Shown: piece after piece, positions 3,558 to 53,121 of the stretch
Numbering within the stretch: the first letter of the stretch is position 1
How the letters are laid out: each line of letters opens with the position of its first letter
NCBI GenBank assembly: GCA_013349435.1
Contig: DUZQ01000002.1
Coordinates: forward strand, 26,909 to 90,908
Direction of reading: 5' to 3'
Length of the DNA stretch: 64,000 nucleotides
Origin: Planctomycetota bacterium
GTDB lineage: Bacteria > Planctomycetota > Phycisphaerae > Sedimentisphaerales > Anaerohalosphaeraceae
Made by a program: the position numbers and the translations under genes
Notes under the pieces: generated by a model
Told to the model about the DNA's origin: nothing
Databases searched by the model: none
The model's input: the letters and a program-made list of their open reading frames with translations, nothing else

Positions 3558-4127
3558 CTAATTGCCCTGACGCATTTTGTTACGGAGTCTCTTTTCGGCA
3601 TCGGCGTTCCAATAACCGCAATCAAGCTCTATAAATACAGACGTATAAGGCAGCGTTATATTCGTCTTAAATACAATTACTTTGAACATCTCGGCGGCAT
3701 CATCCATCGTGGTTATTAACCTGTCATTTGGCATTGTCCTGACCGTACGGTTTTGTAACAGAAGCCCCAACTGGTTGCGATAGGCCCTTATTCCGGGCGC
3801 ATCCACCTCTGAAACGTTATCTAATTCATCGTTGATATATACAACAGGTTTGACGTGCGGGGCATCATCCACCGCGTCAAGGACCGCCCGGACCGTTTCG
3901 AGCTGCCCCCGGCCGGTAACTACAGTTTCAATGCCCGGCTTATTCTGGGCCGGATACGCGGAATCTGCAACCACAATCCAATTGCGTTGCCCCATCTTGG
4001 GAAGGATACGCCAGAGCCTGCCCCGGCCCGTGGTGCGGCAACCCGCGGACAAGCCAATCATCAATAACAAAACCGATAAAATAATAGACCAACCGCCGGG
4101 AACGAAGGTTTTCCTTTTTCTTGTCAT
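3558..4127 (-). CDS. Lipoprotein with RbsD/FucU-like domain
   Basis: N-terminal hydrophobic segment with lipobox-like LSAGC; LPKMGQRNWIVVADSAYP resembles the FucU/RbsD N-terminus (LxxMGHGDxIVIADxNFP). Confidence 0.6.
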   Translation of the reverse strand: MTRKRKTFVPGGWSIILSVLLLMIGLSAGCRTTGRGRLWRILPKMGQRNWIVVADSAYPAQNKPGIETVVTGRGQLETVRAVLDAVDDAPHVKPVVYINDELDNVSEVDAPGIRAYRNQLGLLLQNRTVRTMPNDRLITTMDDAAEMFKVIVFKTNITLPYTSVFIELDCGYWNADAEKRLRNKMRQGN

Positions 4128-4253
4128 GATATTACCCCTTTCTTGCTTCTATTGGATAATTATACTATGATTCAGCCTGTTAAGCGAGAAAGATGTTGTA
4201 AACAAAAAGCTTCTAACTAAAAAAAGATGCCGATGAATTGAAAGGTTTCAATT

Positions 4254-5294
4254 GTGGCGGATAAAAACAAAAGGGCTGTTGACGTCCTCGATAAAGACAG
4301 CCTTATTGTCGTCTCCGGGGCCGGGGGATTTATCGCCGGGGCACTGACTAAATATTTCAGGGAACAGGGCTTCAACCGCATCCGTGCAATCGACAAAAAG
4401 CCTCTGGACCAGTGGTATCAGCGGGTCAGCGGTGTCGAATCTTTGCAAATGGACTTGAGCGAAAAAGACACCTGCACAAAGGCTTGCGAGGGAGCGACGG
4501 AGGTATATAACTTAGCTGCGGATATGGGCGGCATGGGCTTTATTGAAAGGTTCAGAATCGAGTGTCTGCGAAGTATTTTGATAAATACACACATGGTTGA
4601 AGCGGCATATCAGGCAGGGGCGGGCCGTTACTTTTTCAGCTCGTCGGCCTGTGTATACAATACCACCCTGCAGGCCGACCCGAATGTCCGAGCATTGAAA
4701 GAATTGGACGCGTATCCGGCTATGGCCGAGAGGGGCTACGGCTGGGAAAAACTGATGTCCGAGATGTTCTGTCGGGAATACTGGGCCGAACGCGAAATGA
4801 AAACCTTTATCGCGCGTTTCCACAATGTGTATGGGCCGTATGGAACATGGGATGGTGGCAGAGAAAAGGCTCCCGCCGCCATGTGCCGCAAGGTCATAGA
4901 AGCCGAGGATACCGGCAATTATGAAATCACCATCTGGGGCGACGGCCGCCAGACGCGAAGCTTTATGTATATCGATGACTGCCTGGACGGTATCGATATG
5001 ATTATGCACTGCGATAAACTGATAGCAACCCCAATCAATCTTGGGTCGAATTATCTTGTTTCCATCAATGATCTGGTGTCAATTGTTGAAAAGATTGCCG
5101 GGATTAAATTAAAACGTAATTATGACCCCGATGCCCCCAAGGGGGTGGCAGGCAGAAACAGCGATAACACTTTCATCAAGCAGGTGCTTGACTGGCAGCC
5201 GGCGACTCCGCTTGAGGAAGGAATGGAAAAAACATATTACTGGATTCAAAAACAGTATACCGACCGTAAAGCGGGTAAACGTACCGTAAGTTAA
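4254..5294 (+). CDS. NAD-dependent epimerase/dehydratase, GDP-mannose 3,5-epimerase-like
   Basis: GTG start; GAGGFIAG Rossmann motif; AADMGGMGFI, SSSACVYN, RFHNVYGPYGTWDGGREKAPAAMCRK typical of GME-type SDRs. Confidence 0.85.
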   Translation: MADKNKRAVDVLDKDSLIVVSGAGGFIAGALTKYFREQGFNRIRAIDKKPLDQWYQRVSGVESLQMDLSEKDTCTKACEGATEVYNLAADMGGMGFIERFRIECLRSILINTHMVEAAYQAGAGRYFFSSSACVYNTTLQADPNVRALKELDAYPAMAERGYGWEKLMSEMFCREYWAEREMKTFIARFHNVYGPYGTWDGGREKAPAAMCRKVIEAEDTGNYEITIWGDGRQTRSFMYIDDCLDGIDMIMHCDKLIATPINLGSNYLVSINDLVSIVEKIAGIKLKRNYDPDAPKGVAGRNSDNTFIKQVLDWQPATPLEEGMEKTYYWIQKQYTDRKAGKRTVS

Positions 5295-5327
5295 AAATAA
5301 TTTGAACCTCACAGAGAAACATGTGAA

Positions 5328-6131
5328 ATGAACGAGAGGAAAAAACCCGCCATTACGGACATCATCGGGCGTATTCAGTATCGTTTAGCGCTGGCGGGAG
5401 GCTGGATTGACCAGCCTTTTATGTCAAAACAAAATCCCTCCCCCCCCGGCTCAATGGTCGTTGTGGCGGTCGAGCCGCAGTTTCGCTGGATGGACCGGGC
5501 CGGCATTTGCCAGAGCACACGCTCAATAGCATTGAATTTGTGGGGAGGCGATTTGCCCGATGAAGACCCGGAAAAACTCGTTCGCCTCTTGTACGAGGTT
5601 GAAAACAAGGACAAAAAAGACCCTTCCGGTTCACAGGATATGATCGGAATTATCTATCCGGGTATCAATCGTCTCGACTATGATTATGCGTATGAGGGCG
5701 GTTATTTTCCCCGGCATATCGAATCAAATAACGACCCGCAAATCGCCGCCTGGCTCGAGAGTATTCTGTATATTCTCCCGGTGAACACCAGGCCGGACGG
5801 ATATAAACCCTTAGAAAGGCGGAATCTGTTTCCAGATTGGGTCGGGCGACTGGCCCAATCCGGCAGGGATTGTTTCGACGCTATTACCAAAAAGGACATC
5901 CGTGCCCTCGGAAAATCGCTCAACGAATGCATGAAGTGCTGGCATATGCTGTTGCCGGACACCTTGGAGCATCCAACGTTAAAGGTGGACCTGCTTTCCC
6001 TGTTGGAATACTATCAGGCCAACTATCCCGGCGCAATGTATTCCGGCTGTGGAGGCGGATACCTTTATGTGATATCGGATGAAAAGGTCCCCGGAGCATT
6101 TAAGATAAAGGTTAAGATCGCCACCAAATGA
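5328..6131 (+). CDS. GHMP-kinase-like protein (short, divergent)
   Basis: N-terminal GRIQYRLALAGGWIDQPF and C-terminal YSGCGGGYLYVIS resemble GHMP sugar-kinase motifs; central PSGSQDMIGIIYPG. Confidence 0.6.
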   Translation: MNERKKPAITDIIGRIQYRLALAGGWIDQPFMSKQNPSPPGSMVVVAVEPQFRWMDRAGICQSTRSIALNLWGGDLPDEDPEKLVRLLYEVENKDKKDPSGSQDMIGIIYPGINRLDYDYAYEGGYFPRHIESNNDPQIAAWLESILYILPVNTRPDGYKPLERRNLFPDWVGRLAQSGRDCFDAITKKDIRALGKSLNECMKCWHMLLPDTLEHPTLKVDLLSLLEYYQANYPGAMYSGCGGGYLYVISDEKVPGAFKIKVKIATK

Positions 6132-6946
6132 CAAATACAATTATCACATCAGGCACCTTTGATAACCTTTGCTCGAACCAGGTTCGTTTCTTACATGAGA
6201 TTGCAAAACTTGGACAGGTCCATCTTTTGCTTCTCAGCGACGAGTTTGTCGAGGCTGTGGGGAGCGGGAAACCGAAATTTCCTCTGCCGGAAAGACATTA
6301 TTATCTCCGGGCCTTTCGGTATGTAAGCAGGGTCCATATTATAACGGACCCGGCCCAATTGCAGAATATACCGGGGATAATCGGTGAAAAAGCGGATTTG
6401 TGGTGTATCCTGCCATCTGAAGAAAGCCCCAAATGCAGGCAGTATGCTGAATCCGGAGGTATCGGGTACAAAATAGTGCCTGATGAGCAGCTTGGCGGCT
6501 TTCCTGAAAACGACATAAGCCACGAGCCAACTTCCGGCAAAAGAGTAATTGTAACCGGTTGCTTCGATTGGCTTCATTCGGGCCATATTCGATTCCTTGA
6601 AAAAGCCTCGGAGTATGGCGATCTTTATGTAGCTGTAGGTAACGATGAGAATATCAAGAAACTCAAAGGACCGGGGCACCCGATGTTTTCACAGGACGAA
6701 CGAAGATACATGGTCGCTGCCGTTCGCTTCGTAAAAGAAACGCTGATTTCATCGGGTCACGGCTGGCTGGACGCCGAACCCGAAATTCGCCGGATAAAAC
6801 CGGACATTTACATCGTAAATGAAGACGGGGACAAAGAAGTTAAACGCAAATACTGTGAAACTTTCGGTATCGAGTATGTTGTATTAAAACGCCTGCCCAA
6901 AAACGGGCTGCCGACAAGAATAAGTACCAATCTCCGCGGTTTTTGA
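6128..6946 (+). CDS. Tandem nucleotidyltransferase (HldE C-domain/cytidylyltransferase-like; second half has a canonical HxGH-type motif)
   Basis: Overlaps the GHMP-like gene by 4 nt; TIITSGTFDNLCSNQVRFL (degenerate) and RVIVTGCFDWLHSGHIRFLEKASEYGDLYVAVGND (intact). Confidence 0.8.
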   Translation: MTNTIITSGTFDNLCSNQVRFLHEIAKLGQVHLLLLSDEFVEAVGSGKPKFPLPERHYYLRAFRYVSRVHIITDPAQLQNIPGIIGEKADLWCILPSEESPKCRQYAESGGIGYKIVPDEQLGGFPENDISHEPTSGKRVIVTGCFDWLHSGHIRFLEKASEYGDLYVAVGNDENIKKLKGPGHPMFSQDERRYMVAAVRFVKETLISSGHGWLDAEPEIRRIKPDIYIVNEDGDKEVKRKYCETFGIEYVVLKRLPKNGLPTRISTNLRGF

Positions 6947-7041
6947 CCGTCAAAATTTTCTGTAAGGACACACAATAAAAAATTGATACAAAATGAATTT
7001 GATTTAATATTATCAAAATTACTTTTAACATAGGACGCCCA

Positions 7042-8397
7042 ATGGAATTTATTAACCCGCCGAATTCAGCCCTTCCGAGTAAGCCGAAACTCCTGCCGCA
7101 CGGAGACATCTATCCCTTTATCCTTTTGGCAAGTTGCTTTATGTGGTGGGGCATCGCAAATAATATGACAGACCCTCTTGTCAAAGCCTTTACGGTCATT
7201 TTCAGCGATTTGTCCACCTTTCAGTCGTCCATGATTCAATTCGCCTTTTACGGGGCTTACTTTTCGCTGGCAATCCCCGGTGCCGTTATTGCAAGAAAAT
7301 TCAGTTACAAGAGCGGGATACTCATTGGTTTAGGGCTGTATTGCGCCGGATGCTTTTTGCTTTTTCCAGCCGGTCTGATTCAGCAATTTCTTCCGTTTCT
7401 TATCGCTTTCTATGTATTAGCTTCCGGCTTATCCATACTGGAAACAAATGCCAATCCTTATATTCTTTCCCTTGGACCGGAAAAAACCTCGACACAACGT
7501 CTGAATCTTGCACAATCTTTCAACCCGGTCGGCTCGGTTATCGGTACTCTGCTGTGCCAGATGCTGATTCTTGCACGGCTCGAAAAACTCAAAGGTGGCA
7601 TTACAGGCAATGAAACGGGCCAACAGTTGAGCCAAATTCAAAGCCGGCAGCTTTTCATTGTTATCACTCCGTATTTAATTATCGGAGCTGTTTTAGTAAT
7701 AGTGTGGCTCCTGATAGCCTTCAAAAAGATGCCTTACGTCAGGGAGCCGGACAGAAATGTGCATTTTATAGCAACCTTCCAAAGGCTTTTCAGGAATCCA
7801 AACTACCTGTTTTCCGTGATCGCCCAATTCTTTTATGTAGGCGCACAGTTGTGTGTGTGGACTTTTACTGTTTATTACATTCCATCTCAACTGGGAATCA
7901 AGGACAGCGATGCCCTGAAATATCATACAGCGGCCTTGGTTTTGTTTGGGCTTTCCCGCTTTATATGTACGGCTTTGATGTCTATGATTAAGCCCCATAA
8001 TTTGCTGGCGGCTCTGAGCACACTCGGTGGAATCCTGACATGCGTCGTTATCTTTGTCGGAGGCAACATCGGTGTCTACTCATTAGTTGCAATTTCCGGA
8101 TGTATGTCACTTATGTTCCCTACCATTTTTGGTTTGGGAAGCAGGGGATTGGGTAGAGACAGAAAAATAGGAGGTTCCGGGCTGATTATGGCAATTCTTG
8201 GTGCTGCAGTACTCGTTCCGGTGCAGGCGTTCATTATTCAGACGGTCAATGAAAATCCTCCGAATTTAGAACCTACCCGATTGAGTATCAGTTCTTCATA
8301 CATAGTTCCGCTTTTTTGCTTTATTGTGATTGCCGCCTACGGTATATATGCAGGAAAAGTTAAAATAACAGAAAGCCTGGAAGCTGAAGCACATTAA
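7042..8397 (+). CDS. fucP: L-fucose:H+ symporter FucP-like MFS permease
   Basis: FILLASCFMWWGIANNMTDPLVKAF, ETNANPYIL, LNLAQSFNPVGSVIGTLL; multiple TM segments. Confidence 0.88.
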   Translation: MEFINPPNSALPSKPKLLPHGDIYPFILLASCFMWWGIANNMTDPLVKAFTVIFSDLSTFQSSMIQFAFYGAYFSLAIPGAVIARKFSYKSGILIGLGLYCAGCFLLFPAGLIQQFLPFLIAFYVLASGLSILETNANPYILSLGPEKTSTQRLNLAQSFNPVGSVIGTLLCQMLILARLEKLKGGITGNETGQQLSQIQSRQLFIVITPYLIIGAVLVIVWLLIAFKKMPYVREPDRNVHFIATFQRLFRNPNYLFSVIAQFFYVGAQLCVWTFTVYYIPSQLGIKDSDALKYHTAALVLFGLSRFICTALMSMIKPHNLLAALSTLGGILTCVVIFVGGNIGVYSLVAISGCMSLMFPTIFGLGSRGLGRDRKIGGSGLIMAILGAAVLVPVQAFIIQTVNENPPNLEPTRLSISSSYIVPLFCFIVIAAYGIYAGKVKITESLEAEAH

Positions 8398-8413
8398 AAT
8401 AGCTGGAAAAAAA

Positions 8414-8866
8414 ATGCTGAAAAACATTCCAGACATCCTCAGCCCTCAACTGTTGAAGGTTCTTATGGAGATGGGCCACGGGGACCAGATTGTCATCGCA
8501 GATTGTAATTTCCCGGCCGCTTCGATTGCCCTGAAAACGGTTTCCGCACAACTGATACGATTAGACGGCCATGGTGTACCGGCGGTTCTGGAGGCGATTT
8601 TGAAGGTATTTCCACTGGACCAGTATGTCCAAAAGCCTGTGAGCCTGATGGAGGTCGTTGATGGCGACGAAGTTGAAACACCTATTTGGGGGCGGTATCG
8701 CGAAATCATAAAAGCAAGCGGTGAACCATGGGGCGATTTTGAGTTGCTGCAGCGGTTCGAGTTTTACGAAAGAGCTAAAAACGCATATGCGGTCATCGCA
8801 ACGAGTGAGTCGGCACGATACGCCAATGTGATTCTGAAAAAAGGGTGCATTATTGTAACATCTTAA
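8414..8866 (+). CDS. fucU: L-fucose mutarotase (RbsD/FucU family)
   Basis: LKVLMEMGHGDQIVIADCNFPAASI with catalytic-His motif; YERAKNAYAVIATSESARYANVILKKG. Confidence 0.9.
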   Translation: MLKNIPDILSPQLLKVLMEMGHGDQIVIADCNFPAASIALKTVSAQLIRLDGHGVPAVLEAILKVFPLDQYVQKPVSLMEVVDGDEVETPIWGRYREIIKASGEPWGDFELLQRFEFYERAKNAYAVIATSESARYANVILKKGCIIVTS

Positions 8867-9011
8867 TATTTATTCTTCCTTCGGAATACTGCGCCCATGA
8901 GAGCATAGATGGAAGTACCCGACATAGTCGGGCGGGGTTTAAGCCCGTTCCAGAAAATGCCGCGTCCGTAAAGGCGTAGAAATTTACCAACACAGTTACA
9001 GGAGATAAACC

Positions 9012-10505
9012 ATGAATTTGAAAAACTATTTCTATTTGTGCTTGATTATCGTTTTACTCTCCGGCTCTTTTGCATCGGCAGAGGAAAAAGAAAGGCATTA
9101 CGAACCATCCTGGGAATCGTTGCGTCATTACAAGATTCCTGAATGGTTCCGTGATGTAAAGTACGGAATATTTATACACTGGGGAGTGTATGCAGTGCCA
9201 GCCTATCACGATGAATGGTATCCAAAATGGATGTACGCCAAAGATGGTGATGAAGAAGGAGAAGTTTATAAGCACCACAGAAAAAAATACGGCGACCAGA
9301 AGGAGTTTGGGTACAAGGACTTTATCCCGATGTTCAAGGCCCAAAAATGGGAGCCCGCGGCCTGGGCCGAATTGTTCAAAAAGGCGGGTGCACGCTATGT
9401 CGTGCCTGTGGCCGAACATCATGACGGCTTCGCAATGTATGAGTCCAGCCATACGCGGTGGGATTCCGTGGAAATGGGGCCCCATCGCGATGTTATCGCC
9501 GAACTTGGCAAGGCCGTCCGCGCCGAGGGTATGTACTATGGAGTCTCAACGCATTATGCCCACAACTGGAACCACTTTTTCTACAGCGAGGAATTTGACA
9601 ATTACGAGTTTCAGTATTCCGGCCTTTACGGCATACCGCACCAACCGGGCGAAAGACCCCCCGAATGGTTCATGCATCACTGGTACGGGCGCACCAGGGA
9701 ATTGGTCGATAAGTATGAACCTGACATACTCTGGTTTGATTTCGGCTTTCTCCTGCCGGAATATGAGGAGTATCGCAAGGCAATAGCTGCCCATTACTAT
9801 AACAAGGGAATCGAATGGGATAAGGAAGTTGTCCTTCAGTTCAAAGATGACGGCTATCCCCCCGGCTATGCAGTGCTGGACGTCGAACGCGGTAAGCTCG
9901 ATGAAATGTACGAATTTTGCTGGCAGACCGATACCTCCGTCAGTAAAAAATCTTGGGGATACATCGAAAATGATGATTTCAAAACCGTCAACAGTCTCGT
10001 CGACGACCTCATCGACATTGTAAGCAAAAACGGATGCCTGCTGCTCAACATAGGCCCACAAGCCGATGGTACCATACCACAGGAGGCCAGGGAGATACTC
10101 CTCGGTATCGGCAAATGGCTTGAGCTGAATGGAGAAGCTATCTTCGAAACTCGTCCATGGCATACTTACGGCGAAGGACCGACCATGGTGATGGGGCGGG
10201 AATGGGATGATGAGTACAAGGAAGCAAAAGGCTATACCGCCGAAGATATCCGCTTCACAACAAAAAGTAATAACTTGTATATTTCATTATTAGTCTGGCC
10301 GGGCGAGAAGGTAACCGTCAAAAAACTCGGCATCAACTCTCCTTTGAAAAAGGATTCTATCAAGTCCATCAAGATGATCGGCGACCTCAAAGAGTTGTCA
10401 TGGTCCCAGGATAACGACGGTCTGACAATACAATTGCCGAGAAAAACCCCATGCAAAAATGCCTCTGTTCTTAAAGTAGAATTGAAAGGTCCTGCTATGG
10501 AATAA
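9012..10505 (+). CDS. Secreted GH29 alpha-L-fucosidase
   Basis: Signal peptide; YEPSWESLRHYKIPEWFRDVKYGIFIHWGVYAVPA, AEHHDGFAMYES, PDILWFDFGF, NGCLLLNIGPQADGTIP. Confidence 0.93.
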   Translation: MNLKNYFYLCLIIVLLSGSFASAEEKERHYEPSWESLRHYKIPEWFRDVKYGIFIHWGVYAVPAYHDEWYPKWMYAKDGDEEGEVYKHHRKKYGDQKEFGYKDFIPMFKAQKWEPAAWAELFKKAGARYVVPVAEHHDGFAMYESSHTRWDSVEMGPHRDVIAELGKAVRAEGMYYGVSTHYAHNWNHFFYSEEFDNYEFQYSGLYGIPHQPGERPPEWFMHHWYGRTRELVDKYEPDILWFDFGFLLPEYEEYRKAIAAHYYNKGIEWDKEVVLQFKDDGYPPGYAVLDVERGKLDEMYEFCWQTDTSVSKKSWGYIENDDFKTVNSLVDDLIDIVSKNGCLLLNIGPQADGTIPQEAREILLGIGKWLELNGEAIFETRPWHTYGEGPTMVMGREWDDEYKEAKGYTAEDIRFTTKSNNLYISLLVWPGEKVTVKKLGINSPLKKDSIKSIKMIGDLKELSWSQDNDGLTIQLPRKTPCKNASVLKVELKGPAME

Positions 10506-14941: not shown

Positions 14942-16780
14942 TCAGTCAATCTTTGGATGATGGTAGCGTTCGATTTTGAAGGCGTAAGCATACTTGCAGG
15001 GCTTTCTGTTGGGTGTTTCAATGATCAAACCTTCACGTGTGATCTCCCAATCAAGTTCCCTGCCGTCACCAAGCATGGTGATGCGTTTAATCTCCTGGGG
15101 ATAAAAGCCGGGGTAACGAGGCCCTTCTTCTCTTTCTTCGATTTCAAATTCCTCGCCGTCGAACATTCCACTAATTCTAAAGGTACCGATGCGTATTATT
15201 ATCTCTTCGCCTTCCTGCTCATAAGTACCGTCTTTACCCTCTCCTGCAATTCCGCCGGAGACCGTAACTTGGCCTTGGTCTTTGAATTCCCAGGTGTACT
15301 CTGCATCGTCTTGCTCTATGGTAAACGTCTTTCCTGCAATTGAAGGTATGTCTTCGTCATCCTCGTCCCAGTCTTCATCTTCGTCTTCATCATCCCAGTC
15401 TTCATCCTCTTCATCCTCTTCCTCTTCAGGACTTTCCAATCTCAGGGTTTTGATAATCGCCTCTTCGCCGGGCCAGGCGAGGAAGATTGCATAAAGGTCA
15501 TCGCCCTTGACTGTGAAACGGATGTCCTCGCTGGTATAGACGGTGTCTGCCTCGTTAAAGCCTATGTCGCTTGCCTCGCCGAGGTTGGTCGGGCCTTCGC
15601 CGGCAATCATCCACGGGCTGGTGCCGTAGATGGCCTCGCCGTTGACATCGAGCCAGGCGCCCAACTCAAGCAGCAACTTGCGGGCACCCTCAGGAATTGT
15701 TCCATCAGGCTTGGGGCCCACATTTAAGAGCAGATAGCCGTTCTTGCTCACACGGTCAACGAGGTTGTCAACCACACGGTCCGGCGGCTTAAATATAAGG
15801 TCTTCGGCATAACCCCACGCTCCGCGGTCATCGACCGTAGAGTCGGTTATCCACTCGTGATAAGTAAGTTTTGCTTCCTGGCCCAGTTCGAGGTCTCGCA
15901 CACCGGTGGCGGGTACGATGTCGTTGCCCTTGTAGGTTACTACTACTTCTTTTCCCTTGGCCTCGGCATCGTTGTAGTAGTAAGCGAGGAAGTCTTTGAC
16001 GTAGCCTTCGGGAATTGAGTCCAGTGCAAAATCGAACCAGATAAAGTCGGGGCTGTATTTGTCGATGACCTCGATAATCTTGCCGTACCACTCGTCCAGA
16101 AACTCCTGGTTGCGCATCGCGCCTTCTTCGTGCTGCTGGCCGTACAGACCTGCATACTTAGGATCGCCGGTGTCATAACGCTTATCCCAGACCGGAAAGA
16201 AGAACCAGTTGGCGGCATGGTGGAATGCGGTAACGAATTTCATATTCCGCTTTCTGACCGCCTTTTCAAATTCACCGACAACATCCCTCTTAGGCCCCAT
16301 CTTCGCGGCGTTCCAGTCGGAATACTTGGTGTCCCACATGGCAAAGCCGTCGTGATGCTCCGCGACGGGACCTGCAAATTTAGCACCCGATTTGGCAAAA
16401 AGCTCGGCCCATTCATCAGCGTTAAACTTATGGGCCGTGAATTTCGGGATAAGATCCTTGTAACCGAAGGTTGGTGTCAGTTTGCCAAATTTTTTCTCGA
16501 AGTGCTTACGGGCCTCAGATTCAGGATCGATATACATGCCGTGAGAGTACCAGGTGGTATTTTCGCCGAAGGCGTGTACGGCATAAGGCCCCCAGTGTGT
16601 GTAAATACCATACTTGCCGTCACGAAGCCACTTAGGGATCTCCTTGTATTCGCGGAGAGATTCCCACGTCGGCTCATACTTTTTGGCCCCACATTTTCCT
16701 GCTTTGCTCAACTGCTCCTCCTGACAGCCGACAATCAGCACACAAACCATAACCAATAAAATTAATGTTAACTTCTTCAT
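14942..16780 (-). CDS. GH29 alpha-L-fucosidase lipoprotein with acidic insertion in the C-terminal domain
   Basis: Lipobox-like LIVGC; YEPTWESLREYKEIPKWLRDGKYGIYTHWGPYAV; PDFIWFDFA; insertion SPEEEEDEEDEDWDDEDEDEDWDEDDED... Confidence 0.92.
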   Translation of the reverse strand: MKKLTLILLVMVCVLIVGCQEEQLSKAGKCGAKKYEPTWESLREYKEIPKWLRDGKYGIYTHWGPYAVHAFGENTTWYSHGMYIDPESEARKHFEKKFGKLTPTFGYKDLIPKFTAHKFNADEWAELFAKSGAKFAGPVAEHHDGFAMWDTKYSDWNAAKMGPKRDVVGEFEKAVRKRNMKFVTAFHHAANWFFFPVWDKRYDTGDPKYAGLYGQQHEEGAMRNQEFLDEWYGKIIEVIDKYSPDFIWFDFALDSIPEGYVKDFLAYYYNDAEAKGKEVVVTYKGNDIVPATGVRDLELGQEAKLTYHEWITDSTVDDRGAWGYAEDLIFKPPDRVVDNLVDRVSKNGYLLLNVGPKPDGTIPEGARKLLLELGAWLDVNGEAIYGTSPWMIAGEGPTNLGEASDIGFNEADTVYTSEDIRFTVKGDDLYAIFLAWPGEEAIIKTLRLESPEEEEDEEDEDWDDEDEDEDWDEDDEDIPSIAGKTFTIEQDDAEYTWEFKDQGQVTVSGGIAGEGKDGTYEQEGEEIIIRIGTFRISGMFDGEEFEIEEREEGPRYPGFYPQEIKRITMLGDGRELDWEITREGLIIETPNRKPCKYAYAFKIERYHHPKID

Positions 16781-44050: not shown

Positions 44051-45340
44051 ATGAAGGTCCAGCTACACTATGGAGACAGCTTTGTGGGCCTGGATATTCC
44101 GGATACTAATATCCGCCAAATCATACGTCCGTGGTCCGGCGACAAGGAAGTCGGCCAGGCTTCGATGCTGAACGAGGCGACGGCCTGTATCCACACGGCC
44201 GGTTTCCAGAATATAATCGCCGGTAAGCGCTTGGGTGTCCTTGTCCCCGACGGGACGCGGAAACTGTTTCTGGAAAGCGTATTCGCTCAGGTGATGCCGA
44301 CGCTAAAAAAAGCTTCACCTGCACGCTTCTTTATATGTACGGGGACACACAATCCCGACACACCTGAAAATTACACAATAGTTGAACAAATCACCGACAC
44401 AGCCGCCGACGCGGGCCTGGATGATTTTGAAATCCACATTCACGACTGCCAAAAAGATGATTTTCTCAGAGCAGGTAAAACCACACTCGCCACCGACGTG
44501 CTGTACAACGCCAAAATTGCTGAAAACGATATTTTTCTGATTCTCTCAGATGTAAAAGTCCATTACTTTGCCGGTTATTCGAATCCGATAAAAAACCTTG
44601 TACCCGGCCTGTGTGCATTCAGAACTATCGAGCATAACCATAGTCTCGCACTCGATGAAAGGTCAACCTTCGGTTTGCACCCGTGGCACAACAACCCTGC
44701 AAGAAGAGATAATCCCTTAGCCGCCGACCAACTGGAGGCTATGAGTATGATTGTAAAAGACCGGCCCGTTTATTCGTTAGTAACAATAAGCGATTCCGGT
44801 CGAATCCGATGGTCTCGCTTCGGCGCCGCCCGGGATGTTACCGCCGAAGCATTCGACGTAGTTGATGAAAAAAACACCCACACCACCGAAGCCATCGACC
44901 GTCTGATAGTCTCATCCGGGGGTCTGCCGAACGATATTGATTTTTACATCGCTCAAAGGGCGCTGGAGCTTACAAAACAACCTCTTGCAGACGGCGGCGA
45001 GGTGCTCTTTTTAGCGGCCTGCCCGCGGGGAATAGGGGAAGAACATACGATGGAAAATTTCTACAACCGCCTTACACAACCAATCGATAAAATCCTCAAA
45101 TCCATCGAGGCTGAATACGAAATGTTCAGTCACAAACCGTACAAGCTCGCCCGGATGCTTAAAAGCCTGCGCCGAATCTGGATGCACACACAGATACCCG
45201 ATGACCTCATTGAAGCAGCGCACCTTTGGCCCGCTCACAACCCGCAAAAGGTAGTTGACACCTGGCTCGCCGAAAACCCCGACACAAAAATCACAATCGT
45301 TGACGGCGCCAACAAAATCGCCCTATATGCAAAAAAATAG
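44051..45340 (+). CDS. LarA-family (nickel-pincer lactate racemase-like) protein
   Basis: VPDGTRK, TGTHNPDTPENY, GYSNPIKNLVPGLCAFRTIEHNHSLALD. Confidence 0.82.
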   Translation: MKVQLHYGDSFVGLDIPDTNIRQIIRPWSGDKEVGQASMLNEATACIHTAGFQNIIAGKRLGVLVPDGTRKLFLESVFAQVMPTLKKASPARFFICTGTHNPDTPENYTIVEQITDTAADAGLDDFEIHIHDCQKDDFLRAGKTTLATDVLYNAKIAENDIFLILSDVKVHYFAGYSNPIKNLVPGLCAFRTIEHNHSLALDERSTFGLHPWHNNPARRDNPLAADQLEAMSMIVKDRPVYSLVTISDSGRIRWSRFGAARDVTAEAFDVVDEKNTHTTEAIDRLIVSSGGLPNDIDFYIAQRALELTKQPLADGGEVLFLAACPRGIGEEHTMENFYNRLTQPIDKILKSIEAEYEMFSHKPYKLARMLKSLRRIWMHTQIPDDLIEAAHLWPAHNPQKVVDTWLAENPDTKITIVDGANKIALYAKK

Positions 45341-48816: not shown

Positions 48817-50343
48817 TCATGGCAGTTGAAGAACCTGAATTTTAAAACTCCATGCATAGTCACACGGAAGTGGATCAGGAAGCATTTCAATAACAAGATT
48901 ATCGCCATCCTGCCGCCATGGCAGCCGCTTCTCACTACCGAGCATCCGAATCACTGAATCCTTTACCGGCCTTACTCCCGGGATAGTATAGGGGGCCTTC
49001 GGCTCGGCCAGGTCGATTGCGTATAAATAATTTCCCTTCATGGTAAACCTTATGGACCCCGCTTTAGAAACATCGACCCCACCTTTGGTGAATGGAGCGG
49101 GTTTAGCACCGAAAAGAGCCGGCTTATTAACCTTCATCCACGCACCGATTTCCTTCAATCCCTCGACCTGCGATGGTGGTAGTGTCCCGTCAGGTTTCGG
49201 AGCAACGCTCAGTAGCGTGATACCGTTATTACTCTTTCGGTCCACAATTTCGTCAATTAATTCGTCGACCGGCCTGCAAACCGCATCGATTGAATAAGCC
49301 CACGAATGGTTACTCCCGAGAGATATATCTGTCTGCCAGACATCTGGTTGAGCCTCATCTAATTCGCCCGCCTCTATATCCAATACCGAGCAGGATAACG
49401 GAAGGTCATCTGACTTACGCGTAACAACGACTTCCTTACCCCGTTTGGCCGCCGTATTAAAGTGATGGGCAAGCACCGCCTTAACATACTTGGGACCAAT
49501 ACATTTCCGATCACTGAACCCGATTTCAAACCACAATTGGTCCGGCCCATACTTGTCAATGACTTCGATAACGCTGTTGTACCATCTCTTCTGGAATTCC
49601 TCCGAGATCGGTTCTCTATGCCACGGTCCCTTGACATCACGTACCGGCCCGTACAAACCCGAATACCTTGGGTCATTCACATCAGTTTTATAAGGACACA
49701 GCATCCTTCCCGGATTAAAAAAGAACCAGTTCGTATAATAATGAAACGATGCGAACGTCTTCATATCATACTTTCTGACTGCCTCGAGCATTTCTCCGAC
49801 GACATCCCGGTGTGGCCCCATGTCCATTGAGTTATATTCGACATACTCGCTGTCCCACATGGCAAAGCCGTCATGGTGTATCGCCACCGGTCCCGCAAAA
49901 TCAACACCAGCTTCTTTGAACAATCGGGCCCACTCGTCAGGGTCCCACTTCTCGGCCTTAAACATCGGGATAAAATCTTTGTATCCGAACTCCGTGCAGG
50001 GCTCTCCGTACTCCTGCTTCACGTAATCATAAGTATTCTTATACCTGGTCCTGTCGATATGCCCCCACGCTTCCGATGTTCCACCTTCCGGCTGGTACAT
50101 ATTACGGCCGCCCCAACATCCAAAAGCCGGCACCGAATAAATCCCCCAGTGGAAATATATTCCGAGAACAGCATCGCAGTACCATTTGGGGGTCTCATGC
50201 CGTCCGAGAGATTCCCATGTCGGCTCATAAAGGCTATCACCGGAGCCAGAGTCAATACCAATCTGACTTTCCTTATTACAGCCAATTATCGTTGCCAGAA
50301 ACAAAATGCTGATTACAACACTTAATATCCTTATTGCTTTCAT
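48817..50343 (-). CDS. GH29 alpha-L-fucosidase-like lipoprotein with Glu in place of the usual nucleophile Asp
   Basis: Lipobox-like IIGC; YEPTWESLGRHETPKWYCDAVLGIYFHWGIYSVPAFG; GPDQLWFEIGF. Confidence 0.88.
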   Translation of the reverse strand: MKAIRILSVVISILFLATIIGCNKESQIGIDSGSGDSLYEPTWESLGRHETPKWYCDAVLGIYFHWGIYSVPAFGCWGGRNMYQPEGGTSEAWGHIDRTRYKNTYDYVKQEYGEPCTEFGYKDFIPMFKAEKWDPDEWARLFKEAGVDFAGPVAIHHDGFAMWDSEYVEYNSMDMGPHRDVVGEMLEAVRKYDMKTFASFHYYTNWFFFNPGRMLCPYKTDVNDPRYSGLYGPVRDVKGPWHREPISEEFQKRWYNSVIEVIDKYGPDQLWFEIGFSDRKCIGPKYVKAVLAHHFNTAAKRGKEVVVTRKSDDLPLSCSVLDIEAGELDEAQPDVWQTDISLGSNHSWAYSIDAVCRPVDELIDEIVDRKSNNGITLLSVAPKPDGTLPPSQVEGLKEIGAWMKVNKPALFGAKPAPFTKGGVDVSKAGSIRFTMKGNYLYAIDLAEPKAPYTIPGVRPVKDSVIRMLGSEKRLPWRQDGDNLVIEMLPDPLPCDYAWSFKIQVLQLP

Positions 50344-50623: not shown

Positions 50624-50914
50624 TTATCGCGAATTACCTAATTGTCGAACAGAATCGAGATTTTCCCAATATTGTGCCAAACTTTTTGAGCCTTTTTGAG
50701 TGAGCTGGTAGCTGGTGTTGGGGATTTTGCCCTTGAAGGACTTTTTGACCTTGAGGTAGGCGGCAGATTCGAGTTTTTCCATGTGGCGGGAGAGGTTTCC
50801 TCTTGTTAAGCTAAGAGTAGTCAGCAGGAAGTTGAAATCGGCCTGTTCAAGACCGGAGAGAATCATCATGATTCTCAATCTTGCCGGCTCATGGATAATC
50901 CTGTCAATCTCCAT
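50624..50914 (-). CDS. Winged-helix DNA-binding regulator
   Basis: HEPARLRIMMILSGLEQADFNFLLTTLSLTRGNLSRHMEKLESAAYLKVKKSFKGKIPNTSYQLTQKG. Confidence 0.87.
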   Translation of the reverse strand: MEIDRIIHEPARLRIMMILSGLEQADFNFLLTTLSLTRGNLSRHMEKLESAAYLKVKKSFKGKIPNTSYQLTQKGSKSLAQYWENLDSVRQLGNSR

Positions 50915-51692
50915 CGGCTGCTTCTCCCTGAAAATGCGAGATGCCTTTTAGCTTTTTCAATGCGTACCGGTTGTAGATATGACCGATTACATAAGCCAAA
51001 AAGCCGTATCCAATGTACGGAAGGCAGACACTAAAGATACAGAAATTTTCCGTAGTAAAAAACATTGGTACGCCTGCAACGATTAATATCGCGTGAATAG
51101 CAAAAAGCATCGGATGAAGTAGATAGATAGGTCCAATTCTTGGGCTTTGAAAAAAATACCATCCGCAGAACATATATGGAACAAAGTACAATGCTGAAAC
51201 AGGCTGCAGGTATTTGTATGCAATATAACCCTTTACAGCCAAATTCCAGGTGCCGAAAAAACAAATGAAAAATATAACTGCAGTGACAATCTCTAAACAC
51301 ATCTTTTTCTTTGATGATTTTGGCACTGGTACCGATACGGTTCCTTCTTTACCGTATATCCGTTGGTCTATCATTTGGTCCAGCATCCCTCGGTTTTTAC
51401 CGCCAAACTTTTTTAAAGTGATAATAAGAAAAATCAACATGGCAGCTAATACAGCAACTGAAGCTGCAATCCCAACACAAACTAAGACCATATTTCCTTT
51501 CCGGAACCCTGCTGTTGCTAAAACCAACAGAAATGCCATACCACCCGCGAATAACATGCTGAAAAGCATTATCATTGCCATCAAAACAATAATAGTCAGC
51601 GTTCGGTTTTGGGCGTACTTGCGTGTCCATTTTGGAATCTCTTTGAGTTTTTCGGTATTTTGATCCTGGGATATGTTAAGTTCATTATCCAT
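50904..51692 (-). CDS. Multi-TM membrane protein, tandem paralog 1
   Basis: MDNELNISQDQNTEKLKEIPKWTRKYAQNRTL; hydrophobic segments; overlaps the regulator gene. Confidence 0.8.
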   Translation of the reverse strand: MDNELNISQDQNTEKLKEIPKWTRKYAQNRTLTIIVLMAMIMLFSMLFAGGMAFLLVLATAGFRKGNMVLVCVGIAASVAVLAAMLIFLIITLKKFGGKNRGMLDQMIDQRIYGKEGTVSVPVPKSSKKKMCLEIVTAVIFFICFFGTWNLAVKGYIAYKYLQPVSALYFVPYMFCGWYFFQSPRIGPIYLLHPMLFAIHAILIVAGVPMFFTTENFCIFSVCLPYIGYGFLAYVIGHIYNRYALKKLKGISHFQGEAADGD

Positions 51693-51731
51693 TGTTATTC
51701 TCCTGTAAATGCGCTGCTTCTTTTAGCTTTT
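51649..51731 (-). repeat. About 83-bp direct repeat copy A (start region of paralog 1 plus the tail of the upstream copy)
   Basis: Identical to 52393-52475 (offset 744 bp), ending at a T4 versus T5 indel. Confidence 0.88.
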
Positions 51732-52436
51732 CAATGCGTATCGGCTGTAAAAATGTCCGGGTAAGGCGCATAGAATTCCATATCCTATTATCGGAATGAT
51801 TATATTTAGTGGTGTCCAGGGCCCTTGAAACACAATGGGCACACCTGCAACAATAAGGATGGCGTGGATAACGTAAAGGATTGGCCACAGCAATACTAAA
51901 AAGCCGGCAGGATTAACAGAACGTGGCTGCCAAATTCCTATAGCTATAATAAGTGGGATAACAAATATTGCCGAAACAGGTTGCATATATTTAATTGGTA
52001 GACCACAAAATACAATCAGGAATATTGAAATCATAACACAGATACCAAAAACCAATCCTGCAATCCATCCTGCAAGCCGATGTTTTTTTGTTTTTTCGGG
52101 TAGTGCAAGTTTAACCTGGCCTTCTTTGCGGTATAACCACCTGTTAAGTTTTTCATCATATTTTCCGCCCCATTTAGGAACAGTGCAGAAGATTAGTAAT
52201 GAAATTACGATTATCAGCGACAGGATACAAATCCATAAAAGAAGCGTATTGCCAGACCGGTAAGCCTTACCTCCAAAGTATGATGGGAAACCGACTGCAG
52301 CAAAAATGAACAGATTTGTTAACATGCCTAGCAGGAAAGGCAGGGTTCGATTTTCTGCGTAGCGTTGTGCCCATTTCGAGATTTCTTTGAGGTTTTCGGT
52401 ATTTTGATCCTGGGATATGTTAAGTTCATTATCCAT
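51723..52436 (-). CDS. Multi-TM membrane protein, tandem paralog 2 (C-terminus frameshifted)
   Basis: MDNELNISQDQNTENLKEISKWAQRYAENRTL; ends SRYALKS* while the lost tail KLKEAAHLQENNNG is readable in another frame. Confidence 0.8.
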   Translation of the reverse strand: MDNELNISQDQNTENLKEISKWAQRYAENRTLPFLLGMLTNLFIFAAVGFPSYFGGKAYRSGNTLLLWICILSLIIVISLLIFCTVPKWGGKYDEKLNRWLYRKEGQVKLALPEKTKKHRLAGWIAGLVFGICVMISIFLIVFCGLPIKYMQPVSAIFVIPLIIAIGIWQPRSVNPAGFLVLLWPILYVIHAILIVAGVPIVFQGPWTPLNIIIPIIGYGILCALPGHFYSRYALKS

Positions 52437-52475
52437 TGTTATTCTCCTGTAAATGCGCTGCTTCTTTTAGCTTTT
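52393..52475 (-). repeat. About 83-bp direct repeat copy B
   Basis: Identical to 51649-51731. Confidence 0.88.
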
Positions 52476-53121
52476 TCAATGCGTATCGGCTGTAGAAGTA
52501 TGAAACCAGGCCGGTTATCACGCCTGTTACAGGAATTGCCAAGTACATCTCATCGCCCGGATTGAGTTGGCCGCCTTGTGAAAAGGTTAGTATTGGGACC
52601 TTGAAAATTATGGCAACAGCCCAGGCACCATAAAGGGTGGTCCAAAGATAGCCTATAATGCTGCTTTTCATCCATCGCCAATTCGCGAATATTAGTAATG
52701 GGCAAATAAACGTTGCTGAAAAAGGCATCCTGAGATAGGCAGGAAAAATTCCGCGTTGTTCCATTATTATTCCAAAGATGATAAATGCAATGAGAGGCAG
52801 GGAAAGGTATTTACCCATTTTTTTCAGGCCGCTGCTCTCGGGCACACCGGTTTTTGCATAATAAGAGGCTGCGTTTTTGTCGCATGTAATCAGAAAATAT
52901 ATTAGCCCAACTATATATAGTCCCAGCATGATCAGGGCAGGGATGAAGTTTCGCTTCAAAAAGAAGTGGACGCTTAAAAAAATCGCTCCAAGAAGTATAA
53001 GATAGGCTATAAAAAAGATGAACATGTGTAACGTTCTGTTTTCGGCGTAGCGTTTGGCCCATTTTGGAATATCCCTGAGTTTTTCCGAATCCTGTGGCAA
53101 TTGATTTTGTTTTGTGTTCAT
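52429..53121 (-). CDS. Multi-TM membrane protein, tandem paralog 3
   Basis: SEKLRDIPKWAKRYAENRTLHMF; ends SRYALKKLKEAAHLQENNNG. Confidence 0.8.
   Translation of the reverse strand: MNTKQNQLPQDSEKLRDIPKWAKRYAENRTLHMFIFFIAYLILLGAIFLSVHFFLKRNFIPALIMLGLYIVGLIYFLITCDKNAASYYAKTGVPESSGLKKMGKYLSLPLIAFIIFGIIMEQRGIFPAYLRMPFSATFICPLLIFANWRWMKSSIIGYLWTTLYGAWAVAIIFKVPILTFSQGGQLNPGDEMYLAIPVTGVITGLVSYFYSRYALKKLKEAAHLQENNNG

What the first reader, a model, noticed from the sequence alone, without database searches (positions are those of the whole stretch)
3558..10505. Candidate L-fucose (or related 6-deoxyhexose) uptake-and-activation locus
Seen: a same-strand run of GME-like epimerase, GHMP-kinase-like protein, tandem nucleotidyltransferase, FucP, FucU and GH29. 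The GHMP-like and nucleotidyltransferase genes overlap by 4 nt. No FucI/FucK/FucA-type genes are present here. Established: FucP imports and FucU mutarotates L-fucose; Bacteroides Fkp activates fucose through a fused GHMP kinase and pyrophosphorylase. Inference: free fucose released by GH29 may be phosphorylated and nucleotide-activated by separate GHMP and HldE-like proteins, an alternative to Fkp, possibly for glycan synthesis rather than catabolism.
Basis: partly seen in the sequence, partly recalled or inferred. Interest (0 to 1): 0.72.

Follow-up and report, generated by a model that had tools for sequence, protein, structure and literature searches.

The report
Three-gene L-sugar activation and epimerisation cassette
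A sugar kinase of an unnamed compact type, a nucleotide-attaching enzyme and a sugar epimerase travel together through at least six bacterial phyla, here beside fucose-type uptake genes, and probably convert an imported L-sugar (L-galactose or L-fucose) into an epimerised GDP-sugar by a Leloir-like route not found described in the papers searched.

Summary
The genes are real; the same-strand run is 4254-10505 (3558-4127 is on the other strand). The core is a triplet: GME-like epimerase, compact GHMP kinase, tandem nucleotidyltransferase (NT). It recurs in at least six phyla, with the epimerase upstream in 39 of 44 loci and the NT downstream in 37. FucP, FucU and GH29 join repeatedly; NT-FucP-FucU recurs in two other genomes. 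The kinase has no Pfam hit, but its predicted fold (pLDDT 92) matches sugar GHMP kinases and the sugar-site residues of Bacteroides fucokinase are invariant; the usual ATP glycine loop is not. All eight genomes lacking the NT encode a Fucose_pyrophosphorylase domain (7 of 35 with NT do), once inside the operon. 'For glycan synthesis' is less supported: ordinary GME copies sit beside glycosyltransferases, these beside importers, glycosidases and AraC/LacI regulators. Best reading: L-sugar to L-sugar-1-phosphate to GDP-L-sugar, then 3,5-epimerisation; L-galactose would yield GDP-mannose. The substrate is unproven. No FucI or Fkp was found in this genome (92% complete).

The parts
4254..5294 (+). 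GME-like NAD-dependent NDP-sugar epimerase (EPI), 346 aa; GDP-mannose 3,5-epimerase subfamily tied to the kinase
   Evidence: phmmer vs PDB: GDP-mannose 3,5-epimerases 8sg0/2c59, 265/261 bits; C133, Y162, K166, K205, R301 match AtGME C145, Y174, K178, K217, R306 and are invariant; separate clade 100/100
5328..6131 (+). Compact GHMP-fold sugar kinase, 267 aa, no Pfam family
   Evidence: AlphaFold pLDDT 91.6; Foldseek top hits heptokinase WcbL, HddA, fucokinase half of FKP; R19, W26, D28, E92, Q103, D104 invariant in 19 homologues and matching FKP R592, W599, D601, E751, Q761, D762 (alignment by eye)
6128..6946 (+). Tandem nucleotidyltransferase, 272 aa; C-terminal half active-type (HSGH), N-terminal half degenerate
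   Evidence: CTP_transf_like 7e-16 at residues 141-233 only; fold of human PCYT2 over the full length, TM 0.77; 4-nt overlap with the kinase gene
7042..8397 (+). FucP-type L-fucose:H+ symporter
   Evidence: TIGR00885 443 bits, cut-off 280; only FucP match in the genome
8414..8866 (+). FucU-type sugar mutarotase
   Evidence: RbsD_FucU 3e-44; PRK15420 L-fucose mutarotase 131 bits, just under the cut-off 141
9012..10505 (+). Secreted GH29 exo-glycosidase (alpha-L-fucosidase or alpha-L-galactosidase)
   Evidence: Alpha_L_fucos 1e-103; best solved relative is BpGH29 exo-alpha-L-galactosidase 7ljj/7snk, 414 bits, vs 282 for fucosidase 4ni3 (7snk identity from PMC12316285)

Best explanation
The locus takes up an L-galacto-configured sugar (L-galactose or its 6-deoxy form, L-fucose) and runs it through a Leloir-like sequence. 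GH29 frees the sugar outside, FucP imports it and FucU equilibrates its anomers. The compact GHMP kinase phosphorylates C1, the NT makes the GDP-sugar, and the GME-like epimerase inverts C3 and C5. From L-galactose this gives GDP-D-mannose, which can enter central metabolism; from L-fucose it gives GDP-D-rhamnose. Shown here: gene content, order, co-conservation, fold, conserved catalytic and sugar-site residues, and replacement of the NT by guanylyltransferases. Inferred: all activities, the sugar, GTP as the nucleotide, and the direction. L-galactose is my preferred substrate, at modest odds.
For: Of 44 type-1 loci, the epimerase is upstream on the same strand in 39 and the NT directly downstream in 37. 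All 27 class genomes with an epimerase hit above 590 bits also carry the kinase. The kinase-linked epimerase is its own clade (100/100), its sister gene lying next to a fused NT-kinase. The kinase keeps every FKP residue named as binding the sugar through its side chain or acting in catalysis except Thr602 and the loop residues. NT and kinase are fused in other planctomycetes. The NT is replaced in the operon by Fucose_pyrophosphorylase in Acidobacteriaceae L024. In L138 a divergent compact kinase (42%) overlaps a ManC-like guanylyltransferase next to an SSF symporter. Genomes without NT: 8 of 8 have PF07959; with NT: 7 of 35 (Fisher 4e-5). Within one genus, three genomes are NT-/Fkp+ and one is NT+/Fkp-. 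FucP, FucU or GH29 recur beside it (L070, L119, L124, L072, L114, L127). In Chloroflexota two LacI-EPI-GHMP-NT-ManC operons occur, one with an ABC sugar importer. A divergent AraC regulator occurs in many loci. GH29 is closest to an exo-alpha-L-galactosidase.
Against: No activity is tested. The glycine-rich ATP loop of GHMP kinases is not conserved and the stretch before it is much shorter, so ATP use is uncertain. The NT fold resembles CTP users. FucP-family genes lie near only 6 of 44 loci, and some relatives pair FucP/FucU with a FucI-like isomerase, so the uptake genes may serve another route in part. The GH29 similarity is weak for specificity: BpGH29's sequence cluster also holds fucosidases (PMC11189522). 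The NT/Fkp contrast rests on perhaps four independent changes, and seven of the eight NT-less genomes have a full-length Fkp, away from the cassette.
Confidence: 0.5

Rival explanations
1. Fkp-like salvage: imported L-fucose is phosphorylated and nucleotide-activated to an NDP-L-fucose used directly to decorate glycans; the epimerase serves another branch.
For: Sugar-site residues of fucokinase are kept; Fkp-type pyrophosphorylase stands in for the NT; a fused NT-kinase sits next to a GT2 glycosyltransferase in L003.
Against: The epimerase is the most constant partner of the kinase (39 of 44). No glycosyltransferase was seen beside the type-1 cassettes checked, whereas ordinary GMEs sit by GT4 genes. 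Regulators and importers look catabolic.
Confidence: 0.25
2. Biosynthetic cassette: the epimerase makes GDP-L-galactose or GDP-L-gulose from GDP-mannose for a glycan, and kinase plus NT recycle free sugar released on turnover.
For: Characterised GMEs run from GDP-mannose (PMC6678494, PMC8787198). ManC-like enzymes are present in all 17 genomes searched, the window's included.
Against: No glycosyltransferase partner; secreted GH29, importers and AraC/LacI regulators beside the cassette. Some genomes (G439, G500, G459) hold a second, ordinary GME; the one in G439 lies beside a GT4 gene.
Confidence: 0.15
3. The compact GHMP protein is not an ordinary ATP kinase: it uses another donor, or is a non-catalytic partner of the NT.
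For: Motif 2 (GSGLGTSS in Fkp) is replaced by GxxxSTR-type sequence and the segment between motifs 1 and 2 is several tens of residues shorter than in Fkp; no Pfam GHMP hit.
Against: Base D104, R19, E92 and the sugar-site residues are invariant in 19 sequences; a pseudo-enzyme would be expected to lose some of them. Two fused homologues keep GHMP_kinases_C hits.
Confidence: 0.15
4. The neighbourhood is two unrelated units: the epimerase-kinase-NT triplet, and a fucose unit FucP-FucU-GH29 feeding a FucI-like or other catabolic route.
For: FucP (with FucU in G392) occurs with a divergent FucI-like gene and without the triplet in G392 and G394; in L124 a FucI-like gene lies between the two.
Against: Same order NT-FucP-FucU-GH29 in L070 and NT-FucP-FucU in L119; own genome has no FucI by either domain.
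Confidence: 0.15

Closest known systems
Fkp, bifunctional L-fucokinase / GDP-fucose pyrophosphorylase (Bacteroides fragilis)
   Same: GHMP kinase followed by nucleotide activation; kinase residues R592, W599, D601, E751, Q761, D762 have invariant counterparts
   Different: Two separate small proteins; nucleotidyltransferase from an unrelated fold class (HxGH cytidylyltransferase-like); kinase about 160 residues shorter than FKP-CTD, without the glycine loop; an epimerase is added
GDP-mannose 3,5-epimerase (plants; Methylacidiphilum)
   Same: Catalytic Cys, Lys, Tyr/Lys and Arg all kept; 42% identity to Arabidopsis GME
   Different: A distinct bacterial clade locked to a kinase and an NT; ordinary bacterial GMEs checked here sit beside glycosyltransferases
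Leloir pathway (GalK, GalT, GalE)
   Same: Logic: GHMP kinase, nucleotide activation, SDR epimerase acting on the NDP-sugar
   Different: NT instead of GalT; GME-like 3,5-epimerase instead of GalE; L-sugar uptake genes
Smirnoff-Wheeler (mannose/L-galactose) pathway of plants
   Same: Would share GDP-L-galactose and GDP-mannose and the GME step
   Different: Would run in the reverse, assimilatory direction with a kinase and an NT in place of phosphorylase and phosphatase
HldE / glycerol-3-phosphate cytidylyltransferase / PCYT2
   Same: C-terminal NT half is of this fold; tandem arrangement like PCYT2
   Different: Below the RfaE domain II cut-off (77 vs 181.5 bits); the degenerate half is the N-terminal one
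Oxidative L-galactose catabolism (Luteolibacter lgu, Phocaeicola vulgatus)
   Same: Possible same substrate
   Different: The known Luteolibacter route oxidises L-galactose to L-galactonate, with no nucleotide-sugar stage (PMC12632266)

Membership tests
GDP-mannose 3,5-epimerase | Catalytic Cys acid, Lys base, YxxxK, Arg that acidifies the Cys (not His/Lys as in GDP-fucose synthase) | tested here: met
   C133, K205, Y162/K166, R301 invariant in 15 homologues and aligned with AtGME; criteria from PMC8787198
GDP-mannose 3,5-epimerase | 3,5-epimerisation of GDP-mannose/GDP-L-galactose | not testable with these tools
   needs enzyme assay
GHMP kinase superfamily | GHMP fold | tested here: met
   model pLDDT 91.6; Foldseek E 1.6e-8 to WcbL, 5.4e-6 to the FKP kinase part, TMq about 0.6
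GHMP kinase superfamily | Motif 2 glycine-rich phosphate loop (GLGTSS type) | tested here: not met
   window reads AGICQSTRS; only G59 and T64/R65 invariant
GHMP kinase superfamily | Motifs 1 and 3 and catalytic Asp | tested here: met
   R19, GGWIDQP, Q103-D104 and SGxGGGYL invariant
Fkp | Fucose_pyrophosphorylase domain (PF07959) fused to the kinase | tested here: not met
   no PF07959 in the own genome
Fkp | Sugar-binding and base residues of the kinase | tested here: met
   R19, W26, D28, E92, Q103, D104 vs R592, W599, D601, E751, Q761, D762 (by-eye alignment, profile-profile alignment gave no match)
HldE/RfaE domain II | NCBIfam TIGR02199 cut-off | tested here: not met
   77.2 bits vs 181.5
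HxGH nucleotidyltransferases | HxGH motif in a Rossmann-type domain | tested here: met
   HSGH at 150-153, C-terminal half; N-terminal half degenerate
FucP | TIGR00885 above cut-off | tested here: met
   442.8 vs 280.4 bits
FucU | PRK15420 equivalog cut-off | tested here: inconclusive
   131.1 vs 141 bits; Pfam RbsD_FucU met
GH29 exo-alpha-L-galactosidase (BpGH29 type) | Specificity for L-galactose over L-fucose | tested here: inconclusive
   closest solved relative is BpGH29, but its cluster also holds fucosidases

The most novel reading that the evidence does not exclude
The cassette is a Leloir-type assimilation route for L-galactose: L-galactose to L-galactose-1-phosphate (compact GHMP kinase) to GDP-L-galactose (tandem NT) to GDP-D-mannose (GME run towards mannose), in effect part of the plant vitamin C pathway reversed, with ManC regaining GTP from GDP-mannose in some carriers.
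Probability: 0.3. Interest if true: 0.8.

Novelty: new variant of a known kind. Interest (0 to 1): 0.64.

Why it matters
If true, it adds a nucleotide-sugar route to the known isomerase and oxidative routes for L-fucose and L-galactose, names a conserved kinase family that Pfam does not recognise, and gives a natural role to one clade of the GME-like enzymes scattered across bacterial phyla. It would also matter for annotation: the kinase and NT are invisible or misleading in the libraries searched, so carriers of the pathway are not counted among degraders of algal and plant L-sugars. The three enzymes are small and testable one by one.

Tried and rejected
Sequence search of the kinase against the PDB gave only noise with one sequence, and sub-threshold FKP hits with the profile. 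Profile-profile alignment of the compact kinase with Fkp kinase domains failed, so residue matching rests on motif alignment by eye plus the fold search. The extra 549-aa gene between epimerase and kinase in L009 (and its homologue before the kinase in L011) had no solved relative. Heptose activation (HldE-like) was considered and set aside: the NT is far below the RfaE cut-off, and the kinase carries the fucokinase-type GGWxD rather than what I recall as GGGTD of heptokinases. A simple ORF caller first suggested that G660 and G439 lack the NT; a genome search showed they have it.
Full report
1. What is there. The window holds six intact same-strand genes from 4254 to 10505. FucP, FucU and GH29 are clear family members. 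The epimerase is closest to plant GDP-mannose 3,5-epimerase among solved structures (261-265 bits; the next class, GDP-fucose synthase, gets 84 bits). The GHMP-like protein matches no Pfam family and only grazes the Fkp profile. The nucleotidyltransferase (NT) has one recognisable half, the C-terminal one.

2. The unit is the triplet. A scan of one genome per species returned 18 loci in Planctomycetota, Verrucomicrobiota, Lentisphaerota, Hydrogenedentes, Chloroflexota (Anaerolineales), Kiritimatiellota, Acidobacteriota and a MAG labelled Rhizomicrobium. Nearly all show epimerase, kinase and NT in that order. With the kinase profile, 40 of 397 genomes of the class matched. In 44 loci of the unfused type the epimerase lies upstream on the same strand in 39 (one of them touching or overlapping by a few bases) and the NT directly downstream in 37, mostly a few bases away. 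Conversely, all 27 class genomes with an epimerase hit above 590 bits also have the kinase. A tree puts the kinase-linked epimerases other than L024's in one clade (100/100) that mixes phyla, as transfer would; its sister lies beside a fused NT-kinase (30 rows, plant GME on a long branch, so only the inner clades are used). More distant GMEs from genomes of the class have a GT4 glycosyltransferase beside or close to them in the three cases checked, as expected for glycan synthesis.

3. Link to uptake. FucP was found near 5 of the 44 loci, plus L070, a contig of the same genome as L010/L011 that begins with the end of an NT gene and continues FucP-FucU-GH29, the window's order. L119 reads AraC, EPI, GH29, GHMP, NT, FucP, FucU. 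GH29 hits above 30% identity lie near seven loci (two more are only 24-25%). With one or two FucP genes per genome of about 4 Mb, chance would put one within 17 kb of the cassette in well under one of 44 loci (rough estimate). Elsewhere the importer differs: in a Chloroflexota genome there are two LacI-EPI-GHMP-NT-ManC operons, one followed by an ABC sugar permease and a binding protein. A divergent AraC-type regulator accompanies many planctomycete loci.

4. The kinase. The model is confident (pLDDT 91.6, pTM 0.90). Foldseek finds GHMP kinases: WcbL, HddA, galactokinase, mevalonate kinase and the fucokinase part of FKP. In FKP, Trp599 stacks on C4-C6, Asp601 holds O3/O4, Gln761 holds O4, Asp762 is the base, Arg592 stabilises, and Glu751 is essential (PMC11982464). 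The counterparts W26, D28, Q103, D104, R19 and E92 are invariant in 19 homologues. The alignment is by motif and by eye; profile-profile alignment failed. FKP's glycine loop 712-720 has no good counterpart: the window has AGICQSTRS, and the stretch between motif 1 and this loop is several tens of residues shorter than in Fkp. So the sugar site looks like that of a fucokinase and the ATP site does not look standard. That is an open question, not a detail.

5. The NT. The model (pLDDT 88.5) resembles human PCYT2 over its full length (TM 0.77). The C-terminal half has HSGH; the N-terminal half has CSNQ there and varies among relatives. In other planctomycetes a single NT half is fused in front of the same compact kinase, which ties the two activities together.

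6. Substitution test. If kinase and NT do the job of Fkp, an Fkp-type pyrophosphorylase should be able to stand in for the NT. In L024 (Acidobacteriaceae) a protein with the Fucose_pyrophosphorylase domain (5e-54), lacking the kinase half, sits between epimerase and kinase, and no cassette-type NT is in the genome. Across genomes, all eight without the NT have a PF07959 protein; of 35 with it, seven do, four of them strongly (Fisher 4e-5). Relatedness inflates the p-value: the NT-less genomes fall in three planctomycete genera and one acidobacterium. Within one genus, three genomes are NT-/Fkp+ and a fourth is NT+/Fkp-. In L138 a divergent compact kinase overlaps a ManC-like guanylyltransferase. 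Together this argues for a sugar 1-phosphate as the kinase product and a GDP-sugar as the NT product. Caveat: in seven of the eight NT-less genomes the PF07959 protein is a full-length Fkp away from the cassette and may have its own role.

7. Which sugar, which direction. The epimerase keeps the full GME catalytic set (criteria in PMC8787198). If it acts on the GDP-sugar from the two preceding enzymes, L-galactose would yield GDP-mannose and L-fucose would yield GDP-D-rhamnose. The first joins central metabolism directly; the window's genome has a ManC-like gene, as do all 17 genomes searched. The window's GH29 is closest to BpGH29, an exo-alpha-L-galactosidase of porphyran breakdown (414 bits vs 282 for the nearest other fucosidase; 7snk and 7ljj are both BpGH29, PMC12316285). 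The GH29s of L119 and L070 and the second one tested in the window also rank BpGH29 first, so this may reflect a broad group that holds fucosidases too (PMC11189522). FKP itself accepts L-galactose (cited in PMC6678494). That FucP carries L-galactose is from memory. I therefore prefer L-galactose only modestly.

8. Not a plain replacement of fucose catabolism. The window's genome has no FucI by either domain tested, but it is 92% complete, and FucK and FucA were not searched. Many carriers do have a divergent FucI-like protein, in L124 right between the triplet and FucP, so part of the uptake machinery may serve two routes.

9. Verdict. A conserved, widely transferred cassette with Leloir/Fkp-like logic, unusual in its compact kinase and in its fixed link to a GME-like epimerase. 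My literature searches found no description of it, but only open-access papers were held.

Noticed in passing
window 3558-4127 (-): Lipoprotein-like protein with a weak RbsD_FucU match (3.5e-4), divergent from the run; role unclear.
   Followed up: partly
window 14942-16780 (-), 48817-50343 (-): Two further secreted GH29-like genes in the same window; the first also has BpGH29 as best solved relative.
   Followed up: partly
window 50904-53121 (-): Three tandem paralogous membrane proteins with a shared N-terminal motif; the one tested had no NCBIfam match.
   Followed up: no
window 44051-45340 (+): LarA-like nickel-pincer racemase, nearest to malate racemase LarAH5 but far below its cut-off (198 vs 462 bits).
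   Followed up: no
L138 1713-3585 (G645:C90): Divergent compact kinase (42%) overlapping a ManC-like guanylyltransferase, after an SSF symporter: a second pairing of this kinase type.
   Followed up: partly
L002, L003, L006, L007, L139-L148, L150: Fused NT-kinase proteins, mostly without the epimerase and one beside a GT2 glycosyltransferase: possibly a glycan-activating branch of the family.
   Followed up: partly
L009 2477-4126, L011 1621-3309: Secreted protein of about 550 aa inserted in the operon, with no Pfam match over its cut-off and no PDB relative; it reads like a beta-propeller glycosidase.
   Followed up: partly
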